A DNA stretch of 64,000 bases, taken from positions 2,294,001-2,358,000 of the forward strand of contig NZ_JABBYJ010000001.1 in assembly GCF_012932565.1 (NCBI RefSeq), in the 5' to 3' direction. The DNA comes from Sneathiella limimaris. GTDB lineage: Bacteria; Pseudomonadota; Alphaproteobacteria; Sneathiellales; Sneathiellaceae. Below the pieces are notes generated by a model. That model saw only the letters and a list, made by a program, of their open reading frames with translations, did not search any database and was not told the DNA's origin. Shown here piece after piece: positions 14,459-30,897 of this stretch; position 1 is the stretch's first letter; every line of letters begins with the position of its first letter. The position numbers were made by a program, and so were the translations under genes.

Positions 14459-14476
14459 AAAAAACGCCATTAGGCG
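14459..14476 (-). terminator. Short terminator at end of chemosensory operon
   Basis: Read on the minus strand, CGCC-TAAT-GGCG followed by six T overlaps the stop codon of the hybrid kinase gene. The stem is only four GC-rich pairs, so termination may be partial, and some read-through into the hydrolase operon is possible. Confidence 0.4.
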
Positions 14477-17400
14477 ACTTCACTTTCTACCTTTTCTTGA
14501 AGAGCAATAATTGACTGGTCGCAAATTTCAATCATTTCCCCAGCCTCATTAATAACAGCCTCTATTTTTTCTGATTTGCATCCCTGATCTATTTCTTTTG
14601 CTTTTTCAGAAGCTCTTTCCAGTCCGAATTGAGCAAAACTACTTTTCAGTGAGTGGGCTTCCCGACCAATCAGTTGCCAATCCTCAGTTTTGATGGCGGC
14701 GTTGATCTCTTCTCTTTGCTCGGAATACTGAGCTATCAGTTTCTCAGCCAAAATTTGAACCATCTCTATCCCGAAATTTTCAATGAGATCTTTAAATTTG
14801 TCTGTATTCAGGACTTGAACTGTGAAAGAGGAATTATCGGAAGAAGACTTTCTCTCATATGGAGTCTCACTGGACTCCATTGCGGGCTGCTCACCGTATT
14901 TTTGGTTTGCAATCCGTTTTAATGTGTCTTGTAAGACCCATTCTTCAACAGGTTTTGTCAGGTAGTCATTCATTCCAGAGTCGAGGCATTTCTTGCGTTC
15001 TTCGTACATCGCATTGGCTGTCAATGCGACGACCGGAATTTTACTAACTTCTCCCGGCAGTTTCCGAATTTCTATTGTTGCAGTATGGCCATCCATTTCT
15101 GGCATCTGAATATCCATTAGAACCATATCGAACTGGCAGCTTGCAACCTTTGCGACGGCCTCCACTCCATTGGGGACAATTTCAACGCTGTGGCCCCATT
15201 TCTTTAATAACTGCTGGATAACTAGTTGATTCACCTCGTTATCTTCAGCGACAAGTATGTTAAGCGGTTTTTGCGTAACGCTGTGTTGTTTTTCGGGAAG
15301 GCTTTTTGATCGTGCCTGCTCCAGTTGCTGCCAATTTGATAACCTGACTGGGAGTTCAAACCAGAACCGGGTTCCATTTCCGTGCTCGCTTTCAACCCCA
15401 ATCTCACCGCCCATTAAGGTTACTAGCTTTTGTGCCATCGCCAGACCTATACCAGAACCCCCATATTTCCGAGTTTGTGAAAGATCCTCTTGCGTGAACT
15501 TGTCAAAGAGATTTGCTTGGGCTTCTTTAGAAATACCTTTACCTGTATCCTGAACCTCGACACGTAGGTAGATCATGTCAGTTTTATTTTCGGCATGGTC
15601 TTTTTGATTGAAATTGACAATGACTGACCCCTCGTCAGTAAACTTAATGGCATTTTCAATCAGGTTATGGAGAATTTGCTGGAGACGAACCCCATCAGTT
15701 TCAACAACTTCTGGTATGTTTTCCGCCTTTGTTATTTTGAAATCAAGATCTTTAGCTGCCGCTTCATAAATCCAAATATTTTGGATATTGTGAATGAACT
15801 CAGGGATACTGATTGGAGTTTGCTCCAAGACGAGCTGATTGGTCTCAATTTTATTCAGTTCCATCAAATCGTTTAAGAGCCTCATCAAGGAGTTTGCAGA
15901 ACTCTTAACGGTCTTGAGATACCCCACTTGTTCTTTATCGAGAGATGTATCTCGCAGTAGGTTTGTAGCCGTCATGATCCCATTCATAGGTGTCCGGAAT
16001 TCATGGCTTATGGTTCTAACGAAATCAGTTTTGGCCTGGTTTAATAGTTCTTGTTCGCGTGCGGATTTAAGGGCAAGTTCTGCCTTGTCTGTGACCTGTT
16101 CAATCTTTTCATGAAGACTCTGTTGGTACTCACTTATTTCAGTAACGTCGAACAGACTGAGGACAAATCCACCATTTTGAACCGGACCAATATGTAACAA
16201 ATAGACTTGGTCTCTTATTTGAAACATCTCACTGAGAGCGGGCGCATCAGTCTCCACAACATTGGCATAGGTTTTTGAAATATTTGTTAGAAGGGGGCCA
16301 TAGTCCTCTAGGTTATCTCTAAGAAGGTCAAGGAAGTCCTCGTAATTGAGGTTTGCTTCGAATAGTTCACGAGGCAAATTTAGGCGAGTTAGTAGGTTAT
16401 CGTTGAAAAGGCGTAATTGAAGAGAATGATCAAAAACGGCGATCATACCGGGAAAGCCGCTTAAAGTTGCGTCTACAACTTCGTTTACACGTTTAAACTC
16501 TAATTCTTGCGTTTTAAGTTCCGTAATGTCCACCCAAACACATGCAGTTCCACCTGAGGTCAGGGGGAACTCCAAGGCCCGGATATAGCGGCCATCATTA
16601 ATGTGACGATCGAATTGCTGAAATCCATTCTTATGTAGATTGAAGCGCTCCTCTATCCATTCCGGCTCTCGTCCCACAGCATCTTCAATGTGCCCATTAT
16701 AGGCAATCATGGTGATGAACTCGATGAAGTCAATCTCCTGATCGGTGTCTAAGTTTAAGGAGCGGTTTAATCGATTAAACTGGGTATTGAAGAGATTGAG
16801 CTTATCATTTTCATCAAAGATTGCGATGGCCGCCGGAAATTTTTCAAACATCTCCTTGATGACTGTTTGAAAATTTTGGAATTTGTTAAGCTCTTGCTCG
16901 CGCTTATAAGCATTGCTGTATTGTTTACAGACAATATTCAATATTTTAAGAAAACTCTGGCTGAGATAATTCTTTTTATCACTGAAAAGCTCAATTATGC
17001 CGATGAGCTCATCATCGTTGAGGATGGGAACAGAAACCACAGAGTTTAAACGTGCTGTCAATGCGGCTTTTTTTCGATTAAATCCAGATGCACCAAAAAT
17101 ACTTGGGATGTAAATGTACTCTCGATTTTTCCAGACTTTGTCTGTCAGCCCTTGTTCTTTTAGAAGGGTTTGTCCCTCTGTCTCTCTGATTAAGTCTCTA
17201 AATTCCGGTTTGCTGCGATCTGACCAGATGTGCTCGGACTGAACAGAGTTCGGTTCAAGTAAGATAATGTGTCCCAGGTTCCAACCGCCAATGGAACAAA
17301 TAAGGTTTAAACTTCTTTGCAAAGCAGTCTTGAAATAGGGGGCTTCAAATATGATCAGGCTGACTTTGTGGAGCAGATCCGTTGAGACATGCTTTTGTTC

Positions 17401-18276
17401 CGTTAGTTTATCAATTTTCGAATTTTTGGTTATTATTTGTAGAGCCTGAGCGAACAAAGCCAAAAGCAATAAGCTCAATCCCAACAGCAGGATTACTGCT
17501 CTTCCGAAAGCTATTTGGCCAGTCGAAAATTGCGGAAATAAAGCGATCGAGATTGAAAAAATAAAGCTGCTGAGTAGAAATGTTCTTCCCCAAAAATCGA
17601 TTGCGAATAGGCTCGGTTTGGTTTTTGGAAAAGCGCAGGCCAACGCAAGAGCGCCGATTATTAATGAAGGGTCTGTAAGTCTGGCAAATATTGACTGACT
17701 ACCCAGAAGAAATTGTGGGTTTTGAACACTGATAGAAACCAAGCATAAAAAATAGATCGTGCTGCCAACTAAACAGATAATCAAGCCAGGGGCAGTAGTG
17801 CCTGCTAGAGCGCCGATATTTGCCCAGTCATATCTTTTTTCCAAAAATCGCAAACCCAACATAATTTGAGCGAAGATATAGGCTCCGTATATGTTGATAG
17901 AATAAGTCAGACTTAAAAAATCTTTTGGGGGGATTTCAGCTGCCTGTTCAAAACCAAAATGCAAAGGGCGATAGCTCAGTAAAGCGCAGCCGAAACCAAC
18001 GAGCGCGATAAAGAGATCTGTATTGGATTTTTGAACAAGGTATAAAAAGCCAAAACTTGTAGCGACAACAAGTGATGTCAGTATGAGTAAAACACTAGAT
18101 GAAAAAATAAACAGCTCGCCTAAATCAACTAGATCTGAAGAGCTAATAAGTAGAGCTGTCGCTGAAACAATCGCACTAATTAAGAACCAGGTGATAAAGC
18201 GGTTTGATATAAGGTAATCGCCAATACCCTTAACCGAAATTTGTGACCGCTTTGCATCTGTTTGCCAGTTGGTCAT
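14470..18276 (-). CDS. Membrane hybrid histidine kinase (GAF-PAS-PAS-HisKA-HATPase-REC-HPt)
   Basis: A 1268-residue sensor kinase. Residues ~25-285 contain seven or eight hydrophobic helices. A GAF-like domain follows (~300-465), then two PAS-like domains (~475-590 and ~600-725). Next come a HisKA domain with the phosphoacceptor in VRTISHEFRTPMNG, a HATPase (LIENAIKF, DTGKGI and GGSGIGLAM boxes), a receiver with VLMDIQMPEMDG and a C-terminal HPt with REAHSLKSSFAQFG. It can therefore run a complete His-Asp-His relay internally. Its start overlaps the upstream HATPase gene by four bases. It is the last gene of the chemosensory/partner-switch operon, so it probably feeds the PP2C/receiver protein or CheY-type proteins; that link is inference. 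Confidence 0.9.
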   Translation of the reverse strand: MTNWQTDAKRSQISVKGIGDYLISNRFITWFLISAIVSATALLISSSDLVDLGELFIFSSSVLLILTSLVVATSFGFLYLVQKSNTDLFIALVGFGCALLSYRPLHFGFEQAAEIPPKDFLSLTYSINIYGAYIFAQIMLGLRFLEKRYDWANIGALAGTTAPGLIICLVGSTIYFLCLVSISVQNPQFLLGSQSIFARLTDPSLIIGALALACAFPKTKPSLFAIDFWGRTFLLSSFIFSISIALFPQFSTGQIAFGRAVILLLGLSLLLLALFAQALQIITKNSKIDKLTEQKHVSTDLLHKVSLIIFEAPYFKTALQRSLNLICSIGGWNLGHIILLEPNSVQSEHIWSDRSKPEFRDLIRETEGQTLLKEQGLTDKVWKNREYIYIPSIFGASGFNRKKAALTARLNSVVSVPILNDDELIGIIELFSDKKNYLSQSFLKILNIVCKQYSNAYKREQELNKFQNFQTVIKEMFEKFPAAIAIFDENDKLNLFNTQFNRLNRSLNLDTDQEIDFIEFITMIAYNGHIEDAVGREPEWIEERFNLHKNGFQQFDRHINDGRYIRALEFPLTSGGTACVWVDITELKTQELEFKRVNEVVDATLSGFPGMIAVFDHSLQLRLFNDNLLTRLNLPRELFEANLNYEDFLDLLRDNLEDYGPLLTNISKTYANVVETDAPALSEMFQIRDQVYLLHIGPVQNGGFVLSLFDVTEISEYQQSLHEKIEQVTDKAELALKSAREQELLNQAKTDFVRTISHEFRTPMNGIMTATNLLRDTSLDKEQVGYLKTVKSSANSLMRLLNDLMELNKIETNQLVLEQTPISIPEFIHNIQNIWIYEAAAKDLDFKITKAENIPEVVETDGVRLQQILHNLIENAIKFTDEGSVIVNFNQKDHAENKTDMIYLRVEVQDTGKGISKEAQANLFDKFTQEDLSQTRKYGGSGIGLAMAQKLVTLMGGEIGVESEHGNGTRFWFELPVRLSNWQQLEQARSKSLPEKQHSVTQKPLNILVAEDNEVNQLVIQQLLKKWGHSVEIVPNGVEAVAKVASCQFDMVLMDIQMPEMDGHTATIEIRKLPGEVSKIPVVALTANAMYEERKKCLDSGMNDYLTKPVEEWVLQDTLKRIANQKYGEQPAMESSETPYERKSSSDNSSFTVQVLNTDKFKDLIENFGIEMVQILAEKLIAQYSEQREEINAAIKTEDWQLIGREAHSLKSSFAQFGLERASEKAKEIDQGCKSEKIEAVINEAGEMIEICDQSIIALQEKVESEVA

Positions 18277-19193
18277 TCAGAAGTGCCTAGCTCCAAGCTG
18301 GCGACAACTATATTGCCGCATCCTTGAAATTGAAGATTATCAAAACAGAGCTGTTTTGCGAGTTTGATGCCGCGTCCATGAAAGTAGTCATGGCTCTCAT
18401 TATCTGATTTGAATTTTGGTTCTAAATATTTATTAAAATCAAAGCCTTTGCCTTCATCTGTTATTTTGAATTCAAGGGTTTGATCTTTGGATGCGAACTC
18501 CAGAATAACACGCTTATTTTTAAAGTTTTTATGCTGCAGTCGGTTCTCTATTTCCTGGTGCCACACACCGTTTTTAAGCAATTCCCCTTTCTCTGAATAA
18601 GATATGCCCAAGTTACCATGCTCAATTGCGTTGATCAGAAGCTCTGTTAAGCCCAATGCAACGTCATCTTTGTTGGGAGCCAGGGAGGCTAGAAGTGAGG
18701 CAATAGCTTTTGCTTCCTCTGGTTTTCGAAGCACAAAAGTTCCTTGCTCTAGCAGTGAAATACCAAGTGAAACCGTTTGGTAGTTTTCTCTGAGTTCAGA
18801 TTTTCTTTGAAAATTCGCAAGAGCATTTTCGATCAACTCAACAAGCTGTTCAGGTTTCTTGTTGCGTTCAACAACAGTAGTGGCCTTTTCGATCAGCTCT
18901 GGCAGCACTTCGTCGGCTTGGTCTTTCGAATAGAGGAGTATAATTTCAGATCCGTTTAAGGACTGTAGACTATAGGGCTCAACAATGCGGGTTTGCTGTT
19001 CGTGGCTGAGGCCCATGAAGTCAGCAATTATAACCTCACTTCCTTCTAGGAGTTGGCTCGCTTTATTGCTTCCGTTCATTTCTGCCGGCGAACAGAACCT
19101 TACATCACCATGAACAAACTGATTGAGTTTATGGAGCGCTTTGTTATCGCCAGCAATGACCGCAATTTTAGAGTGGAGTTCAGGTTTCATCAC
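18273..19193 (-). CDS. Receiver-like / HATPase (anti-sigma-kinase type) protein
   Basis: A 306-residue protein. The first ~125 residues look like a divergent receiver fold (KIAVIAGDNKALHKL, SEVIIADFMG, EIILLYSK). The C-terminal ~150 residues form a GHKL ATPase of the RsbW/SpoIIAB type with an N box LGLTELLINAIEHGN, a G1 box DEGKGFD and a G2 box HGRGI. There is no HisKA domain. Such proteins bind and phosphorylate STAS antagonists. Together with the neighbouring PP2C phosphatase and STAS genes this completes a partner-switch set. It overlaps the PP2C gene by 14 bases and the hybrid kinase gene by four. Confidence 0.8.
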   Translation of the reverse strand: MMKPELHSKIAVIAGDNKALHKLNQFVHGDVRFCSPAEMNGSNKASQLLEGSEVIIADFMGLSHEQQTRIVEPYSLQSLNGSEIILLYSKDQADEVLPELIEKATTVVERNKKPEQLVELIENALANFQRKSELRENYQTVSLGISLLEQGTFVLRKPEEAKAIASLLASLAPNKDDVALGLTELLINAIEHGNLGISYSEKGELLKNGVWHQEIENRLQHKNFKNKRVILEFASKDQTLEFKITDEGKGFDFNKYLEPKFKSDNESHDYFHGRGIKLAKQLCFDNLQFQGCGNIVVASLELGTSE

Positions 19194-20415
19194 TGTTCCT
19201 GTTCTCCAGATAAATGATTGTCAGGTCATCTGGTTGTTCACCAAAAGTCAGTTTGTGAAAATTTGTGACAAGAGATTCAAGGATTTGATTTCCAGACTGA
19301 TCTGCTGACCAGTGTCTATTCAGATCGTCTCTCAGGCCCTCATCACCAAGAAATCCGCCGTGTTCAGCTTCAACCTCCACCAATGCGTCACTATAAGCAA
19401 TCACCTTACAGTTGGCACCAAAGGGGATGGTTTGGCTTTTGTATTGCCAACCACTCTGTAGCCCTAATGGCAGGCCCGATGCAGACATGATTTCAAAATT
19501 GGGACCTGTTGCAGGATTTTGGAGTAGGGGGGGCTGACTTCCAGCTATTGCATATGTGAGTTCCCCTTCTTTCACATCGAGGCAAAAATAAAGCATCGTT
19601 GCATAAGAACCGGTAGAGAGATTTTTATTTAGGAAATTGTTGAGCTCATTAAATAACTGGTCCGGATGAGCATACAAATCACTTGCCGATGCTAGCCAGG
19701 TCTGCATGCGGAAGGTATTTAATGAAGCAGCAACACCATGACCCGAGAAATCTGCAACATAAAAGGCAATTTGGTGTTCATTAATAGGAAGTATGCCGCC
19801 AATGTCACCACCTAGCTCGGAGGAAGGCTCGTAATGCCAGCCAAGATCAAGGTTATATCTTTCGGCGAAGTCTTTGAGATCGTTTTGCTGTGGACATATA
19901 TCGAGTTGAAGTTTTCTGGCCTGTTCTAATTCGCTGGCGACACGATCATGAAAGGATTGAAGACGCGCAATATAAATCTTGTTTTCAAGATGAACTTTGG
20001 TTCGGGCTAAAATTTCGTATTTTTTGATTGGCTTGACAACCATGTCACTGGCGCCAAATTCAAAAGCTTTTGTAATATCAGCAGCTGTATCTCGACCACT
20101 TTCGATTAGAACTGGTATGTTCCGCGTTTGAGGGTTCGCTCTGAGTTTTTTACAAACTTCAAACCCATCCATTTTTGGCATCTCCAAATCCAAAATAATT
20201 AGATCTGGTATTTCCTCCTCAATCATTTCAAGCGCTTCCAATCCATTTACGGCGAATTGGACATTCTGATAGCCACCTGCTTTAAGGCAGGCACCTATTA
20301 ATTCTCGGATAAGCATGGAGTCATCGACAACTAAAATCCGAGAGGAAAAGAGTGCGGATTGCTCTTCGTTCGATAAATCGAGTTCTTGTGTTTCTGGAGA
20401 CAGGTTTGATGACAT
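19180..20415 (-). CDS. Response regulator with PP2C (SpoIIE/RsbU-type) phosphatase output
   Basis: A 411-residue protein. Residues ~27-150 are an intact receiver (ILVVDDSMLIRE, phosphoacceptor in LIILDLEMPKMDG, Lys in MVVKPIKKYE). A coiled linker (~150-185) contains the QLDICPQQ stretch typical of these enzymes. Residues ~190-405 are a PP2C/SpoIIE domain with metal-binding SSELGGDIGG and VADFSGHGVAA. It should dephosphorylate a phospho-STAS protein when its receiver is phosphorylated. Its partner is most likely the STAS protein encoded immediately upstream, six bases away. CheA or the hybrid kinase in the same operon could phosphorylate the receiver. Confidence 0.88.
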   Translation of the reverse strand: MSSNLSPETQELDLSNEEQSALFSSRILVVDDSMLIRELIGACLKAGGYQNVQFAVNGLEALEMIEEEIPDLIILDLEMPKMDGFEVCKKLRANPQTRNIPVLIESGRDTAADITKAFEFGASDMVVKPIKKYEILARTKVHLENKIYIARLQSFHDRVASELEQARKLQLDICPQQNDLKDFAERYNLDLGWHYEPSSELGGDIGGILPINEHQIAFYVADFSGHGVAASLNTFRMQTWLASASDLYAHPDQLFNELNNFLNKNLSTGSYATMLYFCLDVKEGELTYAIAGSQPPLLQNPATGPNFEIMSASGLPLGLQSGWQYKSQTIPFGANCKVIAYSDALVEVEAEHGGFLGDEGLRDDLNRHWSADQSGNQILESLVTNFHKLTFGEQPDDLTIIYLENRNSDET

Positions 20416-20421
20416 GGCAAC

Positions 20422-20727
20422 CTACGGAACAATAGTAATGATCTTATCAATCTCGGAAATTTCTAATAGTCGTTTGACTTGGCCCGCAGGTTTAAGCAAT
20501 TGAAGTTTAGCGCCTGTTTTATCAGCGGTTTCGCGAGCGATCATCAGCATACCCAGGCCAGCTGAATCAATGCTTTCAAGGCCACTTAGATCTATCAGGC
20601 AGCTCTTGTATTTTTTATCGTTCAGAAGGTCCAATAATTCCCTAAAACTATTGTGATCCTCAAAAGATAGTTTTTCCGTAAGAGCAATGTTGAGCGTTGT
20701 ATTATCACTTGTGACGACTGGCTTCAT
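20422..20727 (-). CDS. STAS-domain anti-sigma-factor-antagonist-like protein
   Basis: A 101-residue single-domain STAS protein. The phosphorylation loop reads LESIDSAGLGML, the canonical Asp-Ser-Ala-Gly arrangement, so Ser is the probable site modified by the HATPase and cleared by the PP2C phosphatase encoded next to it. It belongs to the SpoIIAA/RsbV type. The final output of the switch (a sigma factor, a cyclase, or the chemosensory array itself) is not encoded nearby. Confidence 0.88.
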   Translation of the reverse strand: MKPVVTSDNTTLNIALTEKLSFEDHNSFRELLDLLNDKKYKSCLIDLSGLESIDSAGLGMLMIARETADKTGAKLQLLKPAGQVKRLLEISEIDKIITIVP

Positions 20728-20745: not shown

Positions 20746-22353
20746 TTAAAATAACTCAATATCATCATCGTCAAATTCGTTGTTTGACGGTGTTGTTGTT
20801 TGACTTAGCTCTGGGGTCGCAGCGGTTTGGGGAATTGCTGAAGTCGCCTCATACTCCTCACCGAATACGGATTTGATAAAGCGCTCTCTCATTTCGCCAA
20901 GAGTTAAGCCTTCGATGATCTGGATAAACCATTCAGTGTCTTTGGACATGCCGACCATTTCTTCCTCAAAGACATCCCCTGTTGCGTTTGAAAATGCGGA
21001 GATACTCTCGTCCATGACCTGAAGCGTGCCAGTAATGTTTTCCAGTCTCTGACGCGCGCGATCCTGGAACTGGAGCTTAGTAATAACTCCGTAAATATCG
21101 GCTGTAATATCCTTGGAGACTGACTCAGAAGATCTTAGCGCTTCTGTGTAGTTTGCATTTTGCTCCACAATACAATCCATCAACTCTCGGATATTGTCTT
21201 TCACCAGAATATTTTCTGATAGATCAATGTTGGCAACCTCTTTGATCCGTGTGTGGCCAACTCTGACACCCTCTGCCATGCGGTTGACTTCTTCGCGCAT
21301 ATTCATCGCCATTTCATTGACGGATTTTGCCAAGTCCTGAACTTCATGTGCGACGACGGCGAACCCTTTGCCTGCCTCGCCAGCTCTAGCCGCTTCAATT
21401 CGAGCATTCAGGGCGAGAAGGTTGGTCTGCTTATTGATCCCTTCAATCTGGGTAATCAAGTCCTCTACATTCGCGACATCCTTTTTCACGTCATCAAGGG
21501 CATAAACAACTTCAACACCATGTTTTGAGGTGTCGACAATCTTGCTGATCATGTTCGTTAAATGCTCGTCAATTGTTTGAATAACATTTGAAAGATCGAT
21601 TGTTTTTCCTTGATATTCAATGTTTTGGGCGGCCTCTGCCAACTGGCTGACCTGATCAGACTGTTTCTGACTATGCGCCGCAAGTTCCTGGAATTTTTCG
21701 GAAATTTCGGAGATGTTCGTTTCCATTAGATCTTGAACAAGCTCAATTTCTGAAAGAACAATATTCATTGCCTTACGCTGGGTTTCACCAAGGCTCATCC
21801 ATCTATTCAGAAAATCAACTGCATCATGAGGTAAGTCTGACAAGTCGAGTGTTGTAGTTTTCGGTTCGATCTCTTCTTCCCCTGTATCTTCTGGTTGAAC
21901 CAATTGGTTATCGGTAGGGTCAGCAGAAGTTTCTTCCTCATTCTGATGAGTTCCCACAACAGAAATTTCATCAGATGTTGAAGTGGAGATTTCTTCCATT
22001 TGTGAGACCTCTGCCTGGATATGTGTATCTTCAATTTCAGCCGCAGGTTCTTCAACTTCAGGTTCACCGAATACCGTTACACCTTCATCTGCAGCCTCGT
22101 CTGTTTCAGGTGTTTTATCGTCTTGTTCAAAGAAGAAATCTTCGACGCCGTCAACTTCTGGTACGGCTTCCATAACAGCTTCACTATCGATGGTGTGGTC
22201 ATCCCCGGCTTCTTCAGCAAGAGGGGCACCAAAAAGTTCAATATCGTCTTCTGAAAACTGGTCTAGTCGACTATCACTATCGTCCACTGCCTGAACAATC
22301 TCCAAATCAGGGTCCATGTGAGGTTTGGTATGGGGTGATGTAGATGTGGTCAT
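20746..22353 (-). CDS. Soluble chemoreceptor-like protein with CheZ-like motif and terminal DIELF motifs
   Basis: A 535-residue protein with no membrane segment. Residues 1-~180 are acidic, low-complexity and probably disordered, and contain D-D-I-E-L-F at 36-41. Residues ~185-420 are coiled coil. They carry a receptor signalling tip with [20 protein letters not shown], followed by [12 protein letters not shown] helix at ~425-440 has FQDRARQ with Asp431 and Gln435, the Asp-x3-Gln spacing of the CheZ active site. After a helical region and a Thr/Pro/Ser-rich linker, the chain ends DDDDIELF. The gene overlaps cheB by four bases. The usual F7 clusters have a second receptor at this position. It may be a scaffold or CheY-P sink as well as a receptor. 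Confidence 0.75.
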
Positions 22354-23417
22354 ATGCGAATAGCCTTTACATCGTGAGCTTTCAGTTGTTCAAAGATGGC
22401 CGCTGTTATTTTGTTTAGGGGATATTGTTTTTCGACGGCTCCGAGTTCAAATGCGACCCTAGGCATGCCATATACAATACAGGAGGCTTCGTCCTGTCCG
22501 ATGGTTGGAGCCCCGGCTTGGCGCATTGCTAATAGGCCTTCTGCGCCGTCTTTTCCCATTCCTGTCAGGATAACGCCGACCGCATTCTTTCCACCGATTT
22601 TAGCTGCGGAATTAAAGAGGACATTAACGGACGGTCTGTGTCCACTGACCGGTGGGCCATCATGTAAATGGCATACATAGTTTGCTCCGGATTTTGCCAA
22701 TTCCAGATGGCTGTGACCGGGAGCGATGTAAACATGTCCGGGCAGAATTCGCTGGTTTTGCTTTGCCTCGACCACTGTTACTTTGGAAATCTGGTCGAGA
22801 CGATTTGCGAAAGAGGTTGTGAAGGACTCAGGCATGTGCTGAGTGATCAGCACAGCAGGTGAGTTGGCGGGCAGGGCGGTTACAATTTCCCGCAGCGCCT
22901 CAACACCACCAGTGGAGGCTCCAATGCAGATAATTTGCTCAGTTGTCTTATACCCAGAATAGGAAACCGTTGTAACTTTCCGTATGTCAGATGGTTTTTT
23001 GGCAAAAACCTGAGCTCGCGCAGCTGTTTTAACCTTGGAAATAACTTCTGCTTTTTTCTCTTCTAAACCAACCCGAACGTCAGATGTCGGTTTTCCAATA
23101 TAGTCAACAGCCCCAATTTCCAATGCTTTCAGGGCAATATCGGCACCTTCCTGTGTTAGAGAAGAAATCATCACTACTGGCATTGGGCGTAGTGTGATGA
23201 TTTTCTCTAAAAAGGCGATGCCATCCATTTTCGGCATTTCGATGTCCAACGTCAAAACGTCAGGATTTAGTTCCTTGATCATCTGACGCGCCGTTAAGGG
23301 ATCAGGTGCAGAACCAATGACTTCAATCCCTGGGTCACTGTTCAACATTGTTGTTAGCATCTGCCGGATGAGGGCAGAGTCATCAACAATCAGGACTGTA
23401 ATTTTACGCCGTTCCAT
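22350..23417 (-). CDS. cheB: Protein-glutamate methylesterase/deamidase CheB
   Basis: A 355-residue protein. Residues 1-120 are a receiver ([14 protein letters not shown], phosphoacceptor in [19 protein letters not shown]). Residues ~160-350 are the CheB esterase with the nucleophile in [20 protein letters not shown], the [10 protein letters not shown] loop and the catalytic Asp in [10 protein letters not shown]. It removes methyl groups from receptor glutamates after phosphorylation by CheA. The start overlaps no upstream gene; cheD ends eight bases before it. Confidence 0.95.
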
Positions 23418-23425
23418 TTTATCCC

Positions 23426-24079
23426 CTAGAACAAATCAATCTCACCGCCTTTATCCACATTCTGTGGAAGGCGTGTCTGGTACTCTTCTTCTTCTTTCAG
23501 TAGATGCACATCGTCATCACGGCGCATCAGAAGACGGTCGACTTTTCCAGTGTCTGGAAAATAGTGAATACGCCTTGGCCAAGGCCCACCAAGATCGTAT
23601 GCGGCTGGCTCAAGGCCCTCGTATTTAAGATAGTTCATGGCAAACTGACCGTTCATGTTGCCAACACGCGTGGAATTCGTGGTCACGTTTCCACCGCCGA
23701 ACAACTTCACCTCTAGGCGGCTTCTTGGACAGCCTGTTTTAAGGATGTCGTTGATGAGGGTTTCCATAGCGAAGTTTCCATATCGCATGGTGGCACTTAC
23801 TGACCCCCAATTTCCGGTGTCACTGGCAGGGAGCATGAAATGGTTCATGCCGCCAATCCCCGTGAGGGGGTCCCGAATACAGGCTGCAACACAGGATCCT
23901 AAAATGGTGACAATCATCTCTTTTTTACCGTCATGGCAGACATAGTGCTCGCCAGGAAGAACCCGAATAACGTTGCGGTTTCGCTTCGGGTCAAAATACC
24001 TGCGCTTCCCATCGACAATAGCGGCCTCGAGATGGGAGCGATGACGGCGATCTACATCATTTGATAGATGACGGTTCAT
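23426..24079 (-). CDS. cheD: Chemoreceptor glutamine deamidase CheD
   Basis: A 217-residue protein, about 50 residues longer at the N-terminus than minimal CheD because of a basic leader (HLSNDVDRRHRSHLEAAI). The catalytic Cys lies in TILGSCVAACIRDP and the His in GGMNHFMLPA, followed by MRYGNFAMETLI and KLFGGGNV. It converts receptor Gln to Glu. The C-terminus GGEIDLF resembles the D-I-E-L-F motifs of the soluble receptor gene downstream. It is five bases after cheR. Confidence 0.94.
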   Translation of the reverse strand: MNRHLSNDVDRRHRSHLEAAIVDGKRRYFDPKRNRNVIRVLPGEHYVCHDGKKEMIVTILGSCVAACIRDPLTGIGGMNHFMLPASDTGNWGSVSATMRYGNFAMETLINDILKTGCPRSRLEVKLFGGGNVTTNSTRVGNMNGQFAMNYLKYEGLEPAAYDLGGPWPRRIHYFPDTGKVDRLLMRRDDDVHLLKEEEEYQTRLPQNVDKGGEIDLF

Positions 24080-24084
24080 TCTGG

Positions 24085-24948
24085 TTAAGCCTCTTTCACA
24101 TAAGCAGTTCGACCCGTCAGCTTTAAGCTTCTGGGCAATCGCTGAAGACTTTCAGAATGGCCCAAGAACAACCTTCCTCCAGGACGGAGCATATCTGTAT
24201 ATCTTTCAACAAGTTGCTCTTTCGTCGCGTTATCAAAATAGATCAGTACATTGCGGCAGAAAATTACGTCGTATTTCTGCTTCATTGGCCATTGGTGTAG
24301 TAAGTTGAGCTGTTTGAAATGAACCATCTGCTTGATCCGGTCCTTCAACTCAAACCTGTCCCCGGACACAGAGACATTATCCTTTAGGGTGCTGGTGTAG
24401 CCCTCTGGAAGGCCTTTAAGGGCATCCGATTTGTATATACCGGCCCTGCCATGATTGAGCATGTTGGTATCCAGATCAGTCGCGAGAATTTTAACATCCC
24501 AGTTACGAAGTGCCGGGACTTTATCCTGTACTGTTGTCGCAATAGAGTAGGGTTCTTCACCAGAAGAGCAACCTGCAGACCAGATCAACACTGAGGAACT
24601 TTGAGATCTCCGTTTGGTATCTGTTGAGAGCTTCAAGAGGTGCTCTGTCAGAGTATCGAAATGATGATGTTCCCGGAAAAACTTGGTCAAGTTTGTCGTA
24701 ACAGCATTAACCAGAAAGCTTGTTTCCTCATCTCCTTTTTGGGAGTCAAGAAGCTCACAATATTGAGAAAAAGTCTTTAGACCCAGTTGACGGAGGCGGC
24801 GTGCAAGGCGACCATAAAGCATATCCTGCTTATGATCGCCGAGAACGATCCCTGTCAGTTCATGAATAAGACCAGAAAGTTTCTTGAATTCTTTATGCGT
24901 GAATTCAAACTCTCTTTTCTTTTCAAGGGTTTCACTTTGCTGGCTCAT
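24085..24948 (-). CDS. cheR: Chemoreceptor methyltransferase CheR
   Basis: A 287-residue S-adenosylmethionine-dependent enzyme with a helical N-domain (FKKLSGLIHELTGIVLGDHK) and the catalytic domain. SAM-binding and family landmarks are WSAGCSSGEEPYSIA, ILATDLDTNML, FKQLNLL and DVIFCRNVLIYFD, with GHSESL near the end. It methylates receptor glutamates. The receptor encoded upstream ends in a DWSEF tail that could tether CheR. A perfect 30-base palindrome lies in the gap between that receptor gene and cheR. Confidence 0.95.
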   Translation of the reverse strand: MSQQSETLEKKREFEFTHKEFKKLSGLIHELTGIVLGDHKQDMLYGRLARRLRQLGLKTFSQYCELLDSQKGDEETSFLVNAVTTNLTKFFREHHHFDTLTEHLLKLSTDTKRRSQSSSVLIWSAGCSSGEEPYSIATTVQDKVPALRNWDVKILATDLDTNMLNHGRAGIYKSDALKGLPEGYTSTLKDNVSVSGDRFELKDRIKQMVHFKQLNLLHQWPMKQKYDVIFCRNVLIYFDNATKEQLVERYTDMLRPGGRLFLGHSESLQRLPRSLKLTGRTAYVKEA

Positions 24949-25005: not shown

Positions 25006-27738
25006 CTAGAACTCACTCCAGTCTTCAGCCGCCGCAGCGTTTGAACTCATCGATGCCACTGGCATTGGTCGATGGGCTGCTGGGTCGCTTTTGCCATTCG
25101 GCTTTGGAGCCTTATATTCAGTTGCAGTTTCTGCAGCTGATGGCTTGGATTGGAAGGAGTGACTATCGTCCACAGTAAAGAAGGAAATTCTGTCTTTCAT
25201 TGCTTCAGACTGATCTTGCAGCGTTCTTGAAGCGGCTGCATTTTCCTCAACCAATGCAGAGTTCTGCTGGGTCATTTCGTCCATCTGTGCGACAGATTTA
25301 TTGATCTCTGAAATGCTGGTTGATTGTTCATCACTAGCAGCTGCAATTTCAGAAACAATGTCACTGAGACGCTTAATGGAGTCTACAATCTCCGTCAGGG
25401 ACTCACCTGCATCTCCAACGAGACGGACACCGTCTTTAACCTGGGCGCCGCTATCGTTGATGAGGCCTTTGATATCCTTCGCTGCTTGTGAGGACCGTTG
25501 AGCGAGGGTGCCAACTTCCGCAGCCACAACCGCGAAGCCTTTACCGGCATCTCCGGCTCTGGCAGCTTCAACAGCCGCGTTAAGAGCGAGAAGGTTAGTC
25601 TGGAACGCGATTTCATCAATGACACCAATGATATCAGAGATTTTTTGTGAAGAAGTTTCGATCCGGTTCATGGCGGTCACCACTTCACCCACAACATTTC
25701 CACCTTTCTCTGCTACATCACGCGCTGAGATGGAGAGCTGATTGGCCTGCTGGGCGTTTTCAGCATTTTGTTTTGTGGTTGAAGCCATTTCTTCCATGGC
25801 AGCGGCGGTCTCTTCAAGGTTAGAAGCCTGTTGTTCCGTCCGCTGGGAGAGATCTATGGTACCTTCATTGATTTCCTGGGCCGCGTTGTTCACTTCGGAG
25901 GCGGAAATCACAATGTCACCTACGATTTCTGTCAGTTGCTCACAGGTGTTATTTACGTTCGTTTTCAGGGTGTCGAAAAGACCATCATAGTCTGTGGTAA
26001 TTCTGCGTGTCAGGTCACCTGTAGACAGAGCCGATAGGGCTACACCTACATCTTCCATTGCGCTTGAAACTGTTTCAGACAGACTGTTGATGGATTTTGA
26101 CAGGTTGAGCATGAAGCCATCTTTCCCATCAAGGGTGAGGCGGCTTTCAAAATCACCAGACACAGCAGCAGAGACAACAGTATTGATTTCTTCTTCAATA
26201 TTGCGTTCGGCTGTTACATCTGCCCATTCAACAACAGTACCGATACGTTCACCTTCATCGTCCATAACTGGGCTTGCGATCAGGTCATAGAACCGGCCAC
26301 CGATTGTTATGCTAGTTTCAAAGGATGATGTCAGTTTATCCAGCATTCCCCGTTGGTGGGATGGGTTCTTGTGGAAACTATCAATGTTAGTTCCAATGAT
26401 TTTGCTTGCATCAAAACTTGGAAGATCCTTTTTCATGGCATCTTCATTACCGATGAGCATATCGCGCATAGTGTCATTGATATAAACGATATTGTAGTCC
26501 GCATCAGAGACCATCATATTCGTTGTGCAGTTATCTAGAGCTGACTTGATACGTGAATTTTCATTAGCGACCCGACGCTCTTCACGAACTCTTGCCAGTT
26601 CCTCAGTAACATCTTCCCATTCAACAACTGTACCTGTGCGGTTTCCTGCTTCATCAAGAACAGGAGACACAACCAGATCATAGTTCTTGCCGCCAATTTC
26701 CAGCGATGTTTCAACGGGTTCTGACATGTTGCCAAGAATGTTACGTTGATGACTTGGGTTTTTGTGGAAACTGTCAATGTTTGTGCCGATAAGTTTGGCA
26801 GCGTCAAATTTAGGCAGATCCTGCTGCATGTTTTTCTCATTTTCCTGCAGCATTTTCATCATGGTATCGTTCGCGTAGACGATGTTGTAATCGGCATCCG
26901 CAACCATGACATTCGTCCGGCAATTATCGAGTGCTGATTTGATCCGGGCATTTTCCGCTGCCTGTTTTTCTTCAGCAGCTTGCTTAGCCATTTTCTCTGT
27001 TACATCTTCCCACTCAACAACAGTACCAATTCGGTCATGTTGGGAATTAAAGACTGGAGATGCGATCAGTTCAAAGTTGCGACCGCCGATTGTGATGGAC
27101 GTTTCAAGCGGTTGACGTAGACCATCCAGTAGACCCCGCTGGTGAGCCGGATTTTTGTGAAAATCATCAATATTTACGCCAATGATGCCATTTGCGTTGA
27201 ACTGCGGTAGGTCGGACTTCAAAGCCCCTTCATTTTCCCGCAGCATTTCAAGCATGGTGTCATTTACATAAGTAATGTTGTGATTTTCGTCAGCCACCAT
27301 CACGTTTGTACGGCAGCTATCCAAAGCGGCCTTGGTTCTCATATTTGCAATGGTATTGTCAGACAGCGTTGACATTTCACGGGCAAATTGGCCAAGGGCA
27401 CCAGGTGTGTTCGTATAGGGAATGTGAACACTTTGACCGGTTGTCATACTAGTAATTGAGGCATCCGCAAGATTACGCAGGATTTTCTCAATTGAAGAGG
27501 CAGTGAAGACTGCAATACCAGCAACAATTGCTAGTTCAATGACAAGATCGACTAGGATCATGGTCAGGGTGTCCGCAGACGATGTGGCGATATTTATGAT
27601 GGATGCGACGATTAGCAGGATGCCTGCCAGCGCAAAACCAGAATATATCCGCATCTTGATGGACATATTTGAAAAAGAGATTTTCTTTTGAGTTGCCGAG
27701 TTAGGCAAACCGCCAGAATTAAATGTCATGTCTGTCAT
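25006..27738 (-). CDS. Aer2-like chemoreceptor with three tandem PAS domains
   Basis: A 910-residue receptor. Two hydrophobic helices (~33-52 and ~60-80) with almost no loop follow a short cytoplasmic leader, so it is membrane-anchored without a periplasmic sensor. Three near-identical PAS modules, each 131 residues apart, carry FHKNP[AS]HQ and VVEW. The first His and the Trp are His194/Trp243, His325/Trp374 and His456/Trp505, always 49 apart. HAMP-like segments (~515-620) and a complete methyl-accepting signalling domain ([19 protein letters not shown]) follow. The end, E-DWSEF after a flexible linker, resembles the CheR-tether pentapeptide. Haem-based oxygen sensing is inferred by analogy with Pseudomonas Aer2. 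Confidence 0.9.
26149..26541 (-). repeat. PAS repeat unit 3 of chemoreceptor
   Basis: Codons ~400-530, opening [13 protein letters not shown], with His456 and Trp505. It joins directly to the HAMP-like region. Confidence 0.88.
26542..26934 (-). repeat. PAS repeat unit 2 of chemoreceptor
   Basis: Codons ~269-399, opening [13 protein letters not shown], with His325 and Trp374. It has the same length as its neighbours and no insertion, which points to recent internal duplication or gene conversion. Confidence 0.9.
26935..27327 (-). repeat. PAS repeat unit 1 of chemoreceptor
   Basis: Codons ~138-268. First of three tandem 393-base units, opening [13 protein letters not shown] and holding His194 and Trp243. 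Unit boundaries follow the repeated ALDxC start. Confidence 0.9.
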
Positions 27739-27756: not shown

Positions 27757-28326
27757 TCAGCTATTCTGAGCTAGTGCCTGCTCGGCACCGCTGATACTTG
27801 GATTGATGATGTCTTTGTTAAAAAGACTTTCGGTATTAAGTAGAGCCACCATTCGCTCCTCAGCGGTGACAAGCCCCATTAAGTGTTTGCTTTCCCCATT
27901 GTCGTCCATATCCGGAACGGGTCTGATATCGTCCTGTTCGACGGTCAAAATGTCAGACACACGGTCCACAAGGACCCCAATAATGCGTTCCCCAATTGCA
28001 ATGATAACGACAACATGAACGGGCGACGCTTCGGTCCGTCCTTGTTTGAAACGGCATCGCAAATCGAAAATTGGAACGATGATGCCTCTTAGGTTAAGAA
28101 CGCCCCGCATATATTCAGGTTGATTGGGAAGCACTGTAACCTCTGACCAGGCCTGGATTTCACGGACCTGCATAATGTCGACAGCATATTCCTCGTCGCC
28201 AATTGCAAAGGTAACGAATTGCTGGCTTCCATGAATGATCTGGTCATCGTTTTCTGCAACTTCTGACGCAGAAAGAGCGGCATTTCCCAGTTTTTCATCG
28301 CTATTTTTAACGTCTAATGCTTCCAT
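27757..28326 (-). CDS. cheW: Chemotaxis coupling protein CheW
   Basis: A 189-residue protein with a ~35-residue acidic leader and a CheW domain: FVTFAIGDEEYAVDIMQVREI, YMRGVLNLRGIIVPIFDLR and IGVLVDRVSDIL. It links receptors to CheA in the array. It lies between cheA (six-base gap) and the PAS receptor gene. Confidence 0.95.
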   Translation of the reverse strand: MEALDVKNSDEKLGNAALSASEVAENDDQIIHGSQQFVTFAIGDEEYAVDIMQVREIQAWSEVTVLPNQPEYMRGVLNLRGIIVPIFDLRCRFKQGRTEASPVHVVVIIAIGERIIGVLVDRVSDILTVEQDDIRPVPDMDDNGESKHLMGLVTAEERMVALLNTESLFNKDIINPSISGAEQALAQNS

Positions 28327-28332
28327 ACTTAA

Positions 28333-30507
28333 TTATCCTGCTGGTTGGGTCGATACACCATTTTCAAGAGTGGCGATCCCTGTCATATCTGAAGGTGGAA
28401 TGATATTTTCGTGTCCACTTCCATTGCTTGAACCATTATTTGGTCCACCGGAAGCTGATCCTTCCTTCAGGTATTTCTGTGAAATTTTGTAGAGCGCTTC
28501 GATATCCAGGATTGGGGCAACCTTGCCGTTTCCGAGGATTGTGGCTGCGGAAATACCCACTACTGGTCGATAGTTATTTTCCAAACTTTTGATAACGACC
28601 TGTTGTTGCCCTATGAGCTCATCAACCACGATACCGGTTGTGCCAAATTCCTCGCTTTCCACAAGTACGACGAGGGCTTTGGAAGGATCGCTTTCAGCGT
28701 TCTGAATATTGAACAGCTGATGCAATGAGCAGAGCGGAATATATTGGCCGCGAATTGAGACAAGTCGCTGGCCGTTAGGTAATTTTTTAAGACTTTCCTT
28801 CGTGGGGCGCAGACTTTCCACAATGTTTGGAATAGGAATAACGTATTTTGCGTGTCCCACCTGGACAATCATGCCGTCCATCACCGCAAGGGTAAGGGGC
28901 AGGGTCATTGTGAAGCGTGACCCCTTGCCAGGATTTGACTGAATGGAAACGCGGCCGCCCAGAGCCTGAATGTTTCTGCGAACGACGTCCATTCCGACGC
29001 CACGTCCAGAAACATCTGTAACTTTTTCCGCGGTCGAAAATCCTGGTGCGAAGATCATGTTATCAATCTCCTCATCAGATGGGGTTGCGTTTTCTGCAAT
29101 CAGTCCACGTTCTATTGCACGCTTTAAAACGGCTTCACGGTTGATACCGCGACCATCATCGGAAATTGTGATTACAATCCGGCCTCCGCGATGTTCAGCT
29201 GATAAAGTCACATTTCCGGTTTCAGGTTTACCAGCAGCGATGCGATCTTCTGTGCTTTCAAGGCCATGATCCAATGAATTGCGGATCATATGGGTAATGG
29301 GATCGCTAATTTCTTCGATAACGGTTTTGTCGACTTCGGTCTGTTCTCCGACAGTCGTCAGCGTAACCTTCTTATCAAGCTTAGCAGCAAGCTCCCGTAC
29401 AAGTCTTGGCATACGGGAAAATACAGATTTTACGGGCTGCATCCGAATAGCCATCACGCTTTCCTGCAGTTCCCGTGTGTGTAATGCCAGTTCTTCCAGA
29501 CCCCTAACCATATTGGGGTATTGTTCTGTTGGAAGGTCGTCTGTTTGCTGAGATAGCATAGATTGTGTGATAACAAGTTCACCCACCATGTTCACAAGGC
29601 GATCAATGCGATCCAGTTCAACGCGAATGGACGTAACTTTTGGGGCGGCTTGTTTCTGTGTTTTTGCCGGTGCGGTAGTTTTTTCAGGAGCTGTTTCAGC
29701 TGTTTTAGTCTCCGCTGTTGCGGAAGCTTCTGAGGCCAATTCGTCTGTTTTTTCTATTTCAGAAGATGAAGGCGTGTCTCCAGCTACTGTAATGGAAAGA
29801 TCGCAATCCTCAGTTACGAACTCAAATACCTCTTCGATTTCTGAAATATCTTCATCAGAAACTAAAGTAAATTTCCAAGCGAAATATGCTTCTTCGCCAT
29901 CCATGCTCGCAAGAGAGGGGAGTCGATCCAAATCAGGCTCGGCAGTCAGTTCTCCAAGTGTTTTGAGTTCACGAACAATTAGCAGAGGTTCGTTTGCGTG
30001 TTTGAATAGTTCTGCCTTGGGGGCAAAAGAAATATGATATGTTTTTTGCTTCGCGTCAGACGCTTCAGGTGAAGTCTCTGAAACTTCTTCTACTTCAACG
30101 TCCTTTGTCTCTGAAATCTTCTCTCCTTTGGTCATAAGAGTAATCTCATCGAGGATCTCTTTACCAAACTCAGGAGTTAATGCTTCTTCGTTTTCCGCAG
30201 ACTCTACCATCGCGCTAAGGATATCTGACGCGCGGAAAAGCAGGCTTACACCTTCTTCAGTTACTGCAATCCTGCCATCGCGCATTCGGTCCAGTAACGC
30301 TTCAAATTCGTGTGAAAATTCAGCAAGTTGCGTGAATTTAAAGGCGCCTGCGCCTGCTTTGATTGAATGAACTGCCCGAAAAATAGCATTCATAACTTCA
30401 GGATCATCTGAAGCGTCTGCCAGTTCAGATAGCTGAGTTTCAACGTCGCTTAAAAGCTCTGCGCACTCTGCAAAATAGGTTGCTTTAAATTGGGCAAATT
30501 CGTCCAT
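28333..30507 (-). CDS. cheA: Chemotaxis histidine kinase CheA
   Basis: A 724-residue kinase. The HPt (P1) domain has His47 in FRAVHSIKAGAGAF. A P2-like segment (~155-250, starting YHISFAPKAEL) follows, then an Ala/Glu/Thr-rich linker. The dimerisation domain (IRVELDRIDRLVNMVGELV) precedes the ATP-binding domain (ITHMIRNSLDHGLES, SDDGRGI, GRGVGMDVV) and the C-terminal CheW-like P5 domain. It phosphorylates CheY, CheB and possibly the PP2C response regulator of the same operon. Confidence 0.95.
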   Translation of the reverse strand: MDEFAQFKATYFAECAELLSDVETQLSELADASDDPEVMNAIFRAVHSIKAGAGAFKFTQLAEFSHEFEALLDRMRDGRIAVTEEGVSLLFRASDILSAMVESAENEEALTPEFGKEILDEITLMTKGEKISETKDVEVEEVSETSPEASDAKQKTYHISFAPKAELFKHANEPLLIVRELKTLGELTAEPDLDRLPSLASMDGEEAYFAWKFTLVSDEDISEIEEVFEFVTEDCDLSITVAGDTPSSSEIEKTDELASEASATAETKTAETAPEKTTAPAKTQKQAAPKVTSIRVELDRIDRLVNMVGELVITQSMLSQQTDDLPTEQYPNMVRGLEELALHTRELQESVMAIRMQPVKSVFSRMPRLVRELAAKLDKKVTLTTVGEQTEVDKTVIEEISDPITHMIRNSLDHGLESTEDRIAAGKPETGNVTLSAEHRGGRIVITISDDGRGINREAVLKRAIERGLIAENATPSDEEIDNMIFAPGFSTAEKVTDVSGRGVGMDVVRRNIQALGGRVSIQSNPGKGSRFTMTLPLTLAVMDGMIVQVGHAKYVIPIPNIVESLRPTKESLKKLPNGQRLVSIRGQYIPLCSLHQLFNIQNAESDPSKALVVLVESEEFGTTGIVVDELIGQQQVVIKSLENNYRPVVGISAATILGNGKVAPILDIEALYKISQKYLKEGSASGGPNNGSSNGSGHENIIPPSDMTGIATLENGVSTQPAG

Positions 30508-30531: not shown

Positions 30532-30897
30532 TCAGCCGCAGACTTTCTGAACCACTTTCAAGAGCTTTTCAGGCTCAAATGGTTTTACAATCCAGCCTGT
30601 TGCACCGGCTGCCCGACCTTCATTCTTTTTGCTATCGTCACTTTCGGTCGTCAGAACCAGAATGGGGGTGGAGCTATGTGCTGGGTTTTGCCGTAGCGCT
30701 TTTACCAACCCGATCCCATCCATGTTGGGCATGTTGATATCTGTAATTACGAGATCCACCATGTTTGACTTGATTGCGTCTAATGCAAGCAGGCCGTCAG
30801 CAGCTTCGACAACTTCATACCCTGCACCTTTGAGTGTGAAGCTGACCATGTCGCGCATGGTTTTGGAATCGTCTACTGCTAGAACTCTCTTCCCCAT
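30532..30897 (-). CDS. cheY: Chemotaxis response regulator CheY
   Basis: A 121-residue single receiver domain: VLAVDDSKTMRDMV acidic pocket, phosphoacceptor Asp53 in LVITDINMPNMDG, LVLTTES with the switch Thr and IVKPF with the conserved Lys. It starts immediately after the stop of the leading STAS gene. No CheZ, CheC, CheX or FliY gene is present in the operon; see the soluble receptor for a possible phosphatase. Confidence 0.95.
   Translation of the reverse strand: MGKRVLAVDDSKTMRDMVSFTLKGAGYEVVEAADGLLALDAIKSNMVDLVITDINMPNMDGIGLVKALRQNPAHSSTPILVLTTESDDSKKNEGRAAGATGWIVKPFEPEKLLKVVQKVCG

What the first reader, a model, noticed from the sequence alone, without database searches (positions are those of the whole stretch)
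25006..27738. Receptor with three tandem Aer2-type haem-PAS modules
Three 131-residue PAS repeats each contain FHKNP[AS]HQ and VVEW. The spacing from the first His to the Trp is 49 in all three (194/243, 325/374, 456/505). In Pseudomonas Aer2 the haem ligand His234 and oxygen-stabilising Trp283 are also 49 apart. Known Aer2 relatives have one or two such domains, so a triple array suggests graded or cooperative gas sensing. Unlike soluble Aer2, it is anchored by two N-terminal helices.
Basis: partly seen in the sequence, partly recalled or inferred. Interest (0 to 1): 0.85.

Follow-up and report, generated by a model that had tools for sequence, protein, structure and literature searches.

The report
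Aer2-type oxygen receptor, three PAS domains
This marine bacterial gene codes for a chemoreceptor with three haem-type oxygen-sensing modules in a row; the same kind of triple sensor is already known from other bacteria, so the receptor itself is ordinary, although a neighbouring protein in its gene cluster may be an unrecognised off-switch for the pathway.

Summary
A 910-aa ORF (25006-27738, minus strand) has three PAS modules, period 131, each with FHKNP[AS]HQ and VVEW, first His to Trp 49 apart. A model (pLDDT 87.8) overlays Pseudomonas Aer2 PAS chain 3VOL without gaps, placing His194 on residue 234 and Trp243 on 283. The haem-PAS reading is well supported; haem itself is untested. The novelty claim fails: a review describes a tri-PAS-haem Aer2 in Vibrio vulnificus (PMC13401364). 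Of 97 distinct receptors examined (own included) 37 have three modules and 12 four or five; 29 of the 37 have a hydrophobic stretch before PAS1. The gene lies in a Sneathiella cluster with F7 'stage 1'-like order: cheY/A/W/R/D/B plus STAS, PP2C and HATPase genes. It is probably an O2 input to a partner-switching stress output. A tree suggests that the array grew inside Sneathiella by copying HAMP-distal modules. In passing: the McpA-like neighbour carries a CheZ-like active-site motif and shares a conserved C-terminal tail with CheD; it could be the phosphatase that these clusters seem to lack.

The parts
25006..27738 (-). Aer2-like chemoreceptor, 910 aa: 2 hydrophobic helices, 3 haem-type PAS, di-HAMP, MCP signalling domain, C-terminal pentapeptide
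27580..27648 (-). first hydrophobic helix, about residues 31-53
   Evidence: Kyte-Doolittle 19-residue mean 2.23 for the stretch starting at 34
27493..27567 (-). second hydrophobic helix, about residues 58-82
   Evidence: mean 2.57 for the stretch starting at 60
26989..27324 (-). PAS1 (residues 139-250), His194, Trp243
26596..26931 (-). PAS2 (residues 270-381), His325, Trp374
26203..26538 (-). PAS3, HAMP-proximal (residues 401-512), His456, Trp505
25927..26205 (-). di-HAMP region (about residues 512-604), aligns with the 3VOL PAS-HAMP chain
   Evidence: 394-604 to 3VOL 21-231; HAMP_2 548-600
25156..25926 (-). MCP signalling hairpin (about residues 605-861)
25009..25023 (-). C-terminal pentapeptide DWSEF, matching the tether pattern x-[HFYW]-x2-[HFYW]
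   Evidence: pattern from PMC7184735
30898..31194 (-). STAS protein, first gene of the cluster
30532..30897 (-). CheY-type response regulator
28333..30507 (-). CheA
27757..28326 (-). CheW
24085..24948 (-). CheR
23426..24079 (-). CheD, ends in GGEIDLF
22350..23417 (-). CheB
20746..22353 (-). McpA-like protein, 535 aa, MCP hairpin, CheZ-like QFQDRARQ (residues 428-435), ends in DDDDIELF
20422..20727 (-). second STAS protein (contains IDSAGL)
19180..20415 (-). receiver-PP2C (SpoIIE) serine phosphatase
18273..19193 (-). HATPase_c_2 protein (anti-sigma-kinase-like)

Best explanation
This is a membrane-anchored, Aer2-type haem-PAS oxygen receptor of a Sneathiella chemosensory cluster with F7 'stage 1'-like gene order. 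Proposed working: each PAS holds a b-type haem through its first His, and O2 is held by the Trp. Binding changes the PAS shape and passes in line through the helical linkers into PAS3, the di-HAMP and the signalling hairpin, and so changes CheA activity. CheR and CheB, which may dock on DWSEF, and CheD set the sensitivity. CheY and the receiver-PP2C phosphatase then act on the STAS proteins and the HATPase, switching a sigma-factor partner and giving a stress-type response rather than mainly steering flagella. PAS3 is the transmitting module; PAS1 and PAS2 are later copies that modify it. Shown by calculation: the modules, the His and Trp places, the linkers, the gene set. Inferred: haem, O2, the direction of signalling, the output, the roles of the modules.
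For: 3VOL aligns with model residues 1-135 over chain residues 172-306, 135 aligned, hence no gap, which puts His194 on 234 and Trp243 on 283; 4HI4 has Z 20.1, rmsd 1.5 A over 116 residues, against Z 12.8 for the best chain that is not an Aer2. Sequence: 3VOL 1.4e-57 including the HAMP part. NCBIfam Aer2 model 693.6 bits over residues 126-910, to the model's last position. Gene order STAS-cheY-cheA-cheW-aer2-cheR-cheD-cheB-mcpA-STAS-PP2C matches the published stage 1 list except for one cheW instead of two (PMC7184735). Of the 10 named alphaproteobacterial loci, 5 carry the whole set, HATPase included (L035, L053, L056, L071, L108); L032, L033 and L034 are cut by contig ends. S. oneidensis Che1, with Aer2, is tied by its genes to RpoS partner switching (PMC9855816). 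The genome has a second CheA elsewhere. The Trp-to-next-PAS stretch has one length in 129 of 154 neighbours, and the model shows 25-residue helices between modules. All 28 Sneathiella modules in the tree lie on one side of a branch (98/100), the 17 HAMP-distal ones on one side of another (99/94). The review gives PAS3 of V. vulnificus Aer2 the transmitting role.
Against: No haem, gas binding or signalling was measured. The score lies below the NCBIfam Vibrio Aer2 cut-off of 1200 bits. One cheW, not two. Of the 10 named loci, L102 lacks a matched 5' STAS and has the HATPase upstream, and L072 lacks matched 5' STAS, PP2C and HATPase. The sigma factor was not identified. The review calls V. vulnificus PAS1 'largely indispensable', which sits badly with PAS1 as a mere modifier (primary paper not held). 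The tree rests on 111 columns; the last-module group has only 75/85 support, and gene conversion could mimic recent duplication. Only 10 of 24 genomes of the genus, own included and several incomplete, had a match at E<=1e-100.
Confidence: 0.72

Rival explanations
1. Same receptor, but the output is flagellar aerotaxis: CheY of this cluster binds the motor, and the STAS/PP2C genes are accessory.
For: The genome has only two CheA matches. F7 systems of the last stage control flagella (PMC7184735). F7 of Alphaproteobacteria form their own clade in that paper, so conclusions drawn from gammaproteobacterial stage 1 may not carry over.
Against: The partner-switching gene set is kept in the same order in 5 of 10 named alphaproteobacterial loci, three others being cut by contig ends. 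[quoted passage not shown]
Confidence: 0.18
2. The three modules differ in affinity and give a graded or cooperative O2 response.
For: The modules are only 57-63% identical, so pocket differences are possible.
Against: The His, the Trp and the surrounding motifs are kept in all three. The review reports similar O2 affinities for the three modules of V. vulnificus Aer2, with unequal roles (PMC13401364).
Confidence: 0.2
3. The PAS modules are structural spacers or bind something other than haem; only one module, or none, senses gas.
For: The Trp is kept even in 10 modules with another residue in place of the His, so conservation in this fold does not always mean haem. Module number varies from two to at least four within the genus.
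Against: The His is kept in 240 of 251 modules and in all three here; structural match to haem-bearing Aer2 chains.
Confidence: 0.08

Closest known systems
Vibrio vulnificus Aer2 (tri-PAS-haem; Stuffle et al. 2022, known to me here only through review PMC13401364)
   Same: Three N-terminal haem-PAS modules in one Aer2-type chemoreceptor.
   Different: Another class of bacteria. The sequence was not compared here. Whether it has two N-terminal hydrophobic helices was not checked.
Pseudomonas aeruginosa Aer2/McpB (PDB 3VOL, 4HI4)
   Same: PAS fold, His234/Trp283 places, HAMP pair after the PAS; pentapeptide tail and F7 cluster according to PMC7184735.
   Different: One PAS, three N-terminal HAMPs, presumably cytosolic, against three PAS and two hydrophobic helices here.
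Vibrio cholerae and Shewanella oneidensis Aer2 (two PAS; 6CEQ is a V. cholerae PAS)
   Same: Tandem PAS, di-HAMP, F7 cluster with anti-sigma-type genes.
   Different: Two PAS modules; the 6CEQ module has Leu at the place aligned with the Trp.
Pseudoalteromonas and Shewanella receptors, e.g. L036, L043 (unnamed proteins)
   Same: Two or more hydrophobic peaks, three PAS at 130-131 residues, EW[EN]EF tail, che genes beside.
   Different: 53% and 50% identical in the best segment; their modules lie outside the Sneathiella group in the tree.

Membership tests
Aer2-like receptors | PAS with haem-ligand His at the 234 place | tested here: met
   PAS1 by ungapped sequence and structural alignment; PAS2 and PAS3 by their alignment with PAS1 and the family
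Aer2-like receptors | Trp at the 283 place | tested here: met
   Trp243/374/505
Aer2-like receptors | b-type haem and O2 binding | not testable with these tools
   Needs purified protein
Aer2-like receptors | HAMP pair after the last PAS | tested here: met
   Residues 394-604 align with the 3VOL PAS-HAMP chain; HAMP_2 at 548-600
Aer2-like receptors | 36H-class signalling domain | tested here: met
   569-861 aligns with 6S1K 'Methyl-accepting chemotaxis protein I' 230-522, 293 residues on both sides (E. coli Tsr by recall); E. coli MCPs are 36H (PMC9855816). No heptad-class model was run
Aer2-like receptors | C-terminal pentapeptide x-[HFYW]-x2-[HFYW] | tested here: met
   DWSEF; pattern from PMC7184735
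NCBIfam NF041847 Vibrio Aer2 equivalog | Score of at least 1200 bits | tested here: not met
   693.6 bits
Stage 1 F7 cluster | Gene order STAS, cheY, cheA, two cheW, aer2, cheR, cheD, cheB, mcpA, STAS, serine phosphatase | tested here: inconclusive
   Same order, but one cheW instead of two
Stage 1 F7 cluster | Place in the CheA/CheB/CheR tree (third clade, gammaproteobacterial) | not tested
   The paper puts all alphaproteobacterial F7 systems in a separate second clade and describes gene order only for gamma and beta; no such tree was made here, so only 'stage 1-like' is claimed
CheZ (for the McpA-like neighbour) | Pfam CheZ (PF04344) match | tested here: not met
   No CheZ match listed at E up to 10; the own-genome search gives three CheZ elsewhere, none here
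CheZ (for the McpA-like neighbour) | DxxxQ phosphatase motif | tested here: met
   Q-F-x-D-x-x-x-Q invariant in 17 of 17 rows; motif role from PMC7750401

The most novel reading that the evidence does not exclude
The McpA-like protein encoded four genes downstream is not mainly a receptor but the missing CheY-P phosphatase of early F7 systems. In this reading a receptor-shaped helical bundle carries a CheZ-type DxxxQ site, and its C-terminal [IV][DE]LF tail, shared with CheD, docks both proteins on a common partner such as CheY. The haem-PAS receptor would then switch the pathway on and McpA would switch it off. This would explain why McpA-like genes co-evolve with Aer2 though they are not needed for the F7 array, and why these clusters have a cheY but no cheZ.
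Probability: 0.33. Interest if true: 0.68.

Novelty: new member of a known kind. Interest (0 to 1): 0.33.

Why it matters
The receptor adds an alphaproteobacterial example of a tri-PAS Aer2-type protein. Across Sneathiella the number of modules varies from two to at least four while the HAMP-proximal module keeps its own group, which makes the genus a natural series for asking what extra oxygen modules do. The cluster shows that the gene order described for gammaproteobacterial stage 1 F7 systems, whose function is called unclear in PMC7184735, also occurs in Alphaproteobacteria. The McpA-like lead, if true, would give a role to a protein whose conserved tail and co-evolution that paper left unexplained.

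Tried and rejected
Rejected: 'triple array is new'. Rejected: 'the Trp proves haem' (Trp in 251 of 251 modules, also in 10 without the His). Thought unlikely: one shared triple ancestor with Pseudoalteromonas/Shewanella; the tree (78 rows from 30 of the loci plus two PDB chains, modules under 91 residues dropped) puts all 28 Sneathiella modules on one side of a branch at 98/100. My first wording that PMC7184735 has no alphaproteobacteria was wrong: it writes the Greek letter and gives them a clade of their own; confidence in the main reading went from 0.74 to 0.72 for that and for the review's wording on PAS1. McpA-like profile against PDB chains: no CheZ among the 20 listed, best E 0.022. McpA-like structure model: mean pLDDT 64.2, pTM 0.35, arrangement not usable, so no fold search was made with it. 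Promoter-like sites near the start of the cluster: 5 found, 4.2 in shuffles. Motif search used too narrow a stretch and found it in 13 of 17 tailed ORFs; one search searched whole ORFs and found 17 of 17. Literature: primary papers on V. vulnificus, L. interrogans and V. cholerae Aer2 are not held. Searches for CheZ with DXXXQ (4 papers, all listed), CttP with CheZ (all listed), CheZ/chemoreceptor/phosphatase motif/McpA (12 of 21 listed) and CheD/McpA/CheB2/pentapeptide (8 of 11 listed) showed no title or abstract start on a phosphatase role of McpA; the papers were not all read and supplements were not seen. Sneathiella with chemotaxis or aerotaxis: 490 papers hold two of the three terms; none of the 6 listed mentions Sneathiella.

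Full report
1. Observation. The minus-strand ORF 25006-27738 encodes 910 residues with three PAS modules of period 131. FHKNP[AS]HQ has its first His at 194, 325 and 456, and VVEW its Trp at 243, 374 and 505, 49 apart each time; the modules are 57.5, 59.2 and 63.3% identical in pairs over 120 columns.

2. Are they Aer2-type haem-PAS modules? PAS1 aligns without gaps to 4HI4 and 3VOL, the PAS of Pseudomonas aeruginosa Aer2. His234 as haem ligand is stated in review PMC13401364 (passages). A model of residues 132-527 made with 37 aligned sequences has mean pLDDT 87.8 and shows three PAS folds joined by 25-residue helices (pTM 0.49, so the placing of the modules relative to each other is uncertain). 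The best structural matches are 4HI4 (Z 20.1, 1.5 A, 116 residues), 3VOL (Z 18.1, 2.7 A, 135 residues, model 1-135 on chain 172-306) and 6CEQ (Z 16.6); the next chain is at Z 12.8. With model residue 1 = protein residue 132, His194 falls on 234 and Trp243 on 283. PAS2 and PAS3 follow by their identity to PAS1 and by the modelled fold.

3. How specific are the residues? In 251 modules from 97 distinct receptors, own included (105 ORFs, 8 dropped for sharing a module with another), the His is kept in 240, replaced in 10 and cut off in 1; the Trp is kept in 251. So the Trp has a role beyond O2. The His-Trp spacing is 49 in 202 of 251 modules.

4. Is a triple array new? No. The review states that V. 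vulnificus Aer2 has three haem-binding PAS domains with similar O2 affinities, and cites a membrane-bound L. interrogans Aer2 by title (primary papers not held; the review also credits L. interrogans with three PAS domains, which I could not check). Of the 97 distinct receptors 9 have one module, 39 two, 37 three, 7 four and 5 five; some are cut by contig ends. Of the 37 with three, own included, 29 have a hydrophobic peak before PAS1; 89 of 97 end in the pentapeptide pattern. The same plan occurs for instance in Pseudoalteromonas and Shewanella.

5. What is particular here? The window is from Sneathiella: two genomes of its genus coincide with records of S. chinensis and S. glossodoripedis (same ORF lengths and module places). 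A tree of 78 modules (111 columns, 25 of 75 inner branches open, midpoint root) puts all 28 Sneathiella modules on one side of a branch (98/100), and within them the 17 HAMP-distal modules on one side of another (99/94); the HAMP-proximal group has 75/85. Thus the Sneathiella array was probably built inside the lineage by copying distal modules, independently of the triple arrays of Gammaproteobacteria, though gene conversion is an alternative. Between neighbouring modules the stretch from Trp to the next module start is 26 residues in 129 of 154 cases and 19 in 18, exactly one heptad less. This fits in-line signalling through coiled helices; the cases are not independent.

6. Surroundings. 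The genes run STAS, cheY, cheA, cheW, this receptor, cheR, cheD, cheB, McpA-like, STAS, receiver-PP2C, HATPase_c_2, then a hybrid kinase. PMC7184735 (passages; section 10 whole) lists for F7 stage 1 the same order with two cheW. It groups all alphaproteobacterial F7 systems in a separate clade, branching before the stages, and describes gene order for gamma- and betaproteobacteria only. So the cluster is called stage 1-like here; whether the order is inherited from before the split or was transferred was not tested. Of the 10 named alphaproteobacterial loci, 5 hold the complete set with the HATPase, 3 are cut by contig ends, L102 has the HATPase upstream and no matched 5' STAS, and L072 lacks matched 5' STAS, PP2C and HATPase (BLAST E<=1e-8). 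The genome has a second CheA and three CheZ genes, all outside this cluster. Shewanella Che1, with Aer2, is linked by its genes to partner switching of RpoS, and its authors call the stress role probable (PMC9855816). Hence the proposed output.

7. McpA-like neighbour. Its C-terminal half holds QFQDRARQ. In the alignment of that half, Q-F-x-D-x-x-x-Q, the final LF and one further D are the invariant columns in 17 of 17 rows. CheZ proteins of the same genome read FQDITGQR and end in QDDIDALLASFD, DQDDIDALFN and TQAEIDALFD. Profile comparison with 12 of the 15 CheZ sequences gives hhalign score 52.7, probability 93.6. Controls: highest of 60 heptad-block shuffles 32.5; highest of 7 Aer2 hairpin windows 21.7; highest of 3 N-terminal McpA windows 17.4; the family without the 8 motif columns 26.8, so the signal rests mostly on the motif and could be convergence or a short chance likeness. 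Pfam lists no CheZ match and a PDB profile search lists no CheZ. Among 128 distinct MCP-tip ORFs in the loci, the 17 with an [IV][DE]LF tail all have QFxDxxxQ and none of the other 111 has it, although 4 of them have a looser FxDxxxQ somewhere (the tip profile was built from McpA-like rows). The same tail, with up to two further residues allowed, ends 60 of 62 complete CheD ORFs (14 cut ones set aside), 16 of 16 McpA-like ORFs and 1 of 110 complete Aer2-labelled ORFs, which is the McpA-like ORF of L074; none of 409 complete CheR, CheB, CheA, CheW, CheY, STAS and receiver-PP2C ORFs has it. PMC7184735 reports that in stages 1 and 2 only the F6 systems include cheZ, and that the McpA C-terminus is strikingly conserved with unclear role; its three mentions of CheD in the main text do not concern a tail. 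DxxxQ is the CheZ phosphatase motif (PMC7750401, passages) and also marks CheT (PMC12654446, passages). The phosphatase reading is a lead, not a result; the genome's other CheZ proteins could equally serve this CheY.

8. Verdict.

Noticed in passing
window 20746-22353 (-), residues 428-435: McpA-like protein of the same cluster has a CheZ-like [10 protein letters not shown]-x-D-x-x-x-Q is invariant in 17 of 17 aligned family members, and the profile resembles CheZ above all controls run.
   Followed up: partly
window 23426-24079 and 20746-22353 (-); related loci: CheD and the McpA-like protein share a C-terminal [IV][DE]LF tail (60 of 62 complete CheD ORFs, 16 of 16 McpA-like); the window McpA-like protein has a second DDIELF near residue 37.
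   Followed up: partly
related loci, PAS linkers: PAS-to-PAS linkers come in two main lengths that differ by exactly seven residues (129 and 18 of 154).
   Followed up: partly
L009, L010, L013, L015, L016, L034: Several Sneathiella relatives have about 160-300 residues between two hydrophobic stretches, as if a periplasmic sensor domain were added or lost in front of the PAS array.
   Followed up: no
L103, L104, L109, L013, L025-L027: Modules of this family that have lost the haem-ligand His but keep the Trp.
   Followed up: no
window 14470-18276 (-): 1268-aa GAF-PAS-HisKA-HATPase-receiver-Hpt hybrid kinase directly downstream, overlapping the HATPase gene by four bases; may be a second input.
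   Followed up: no
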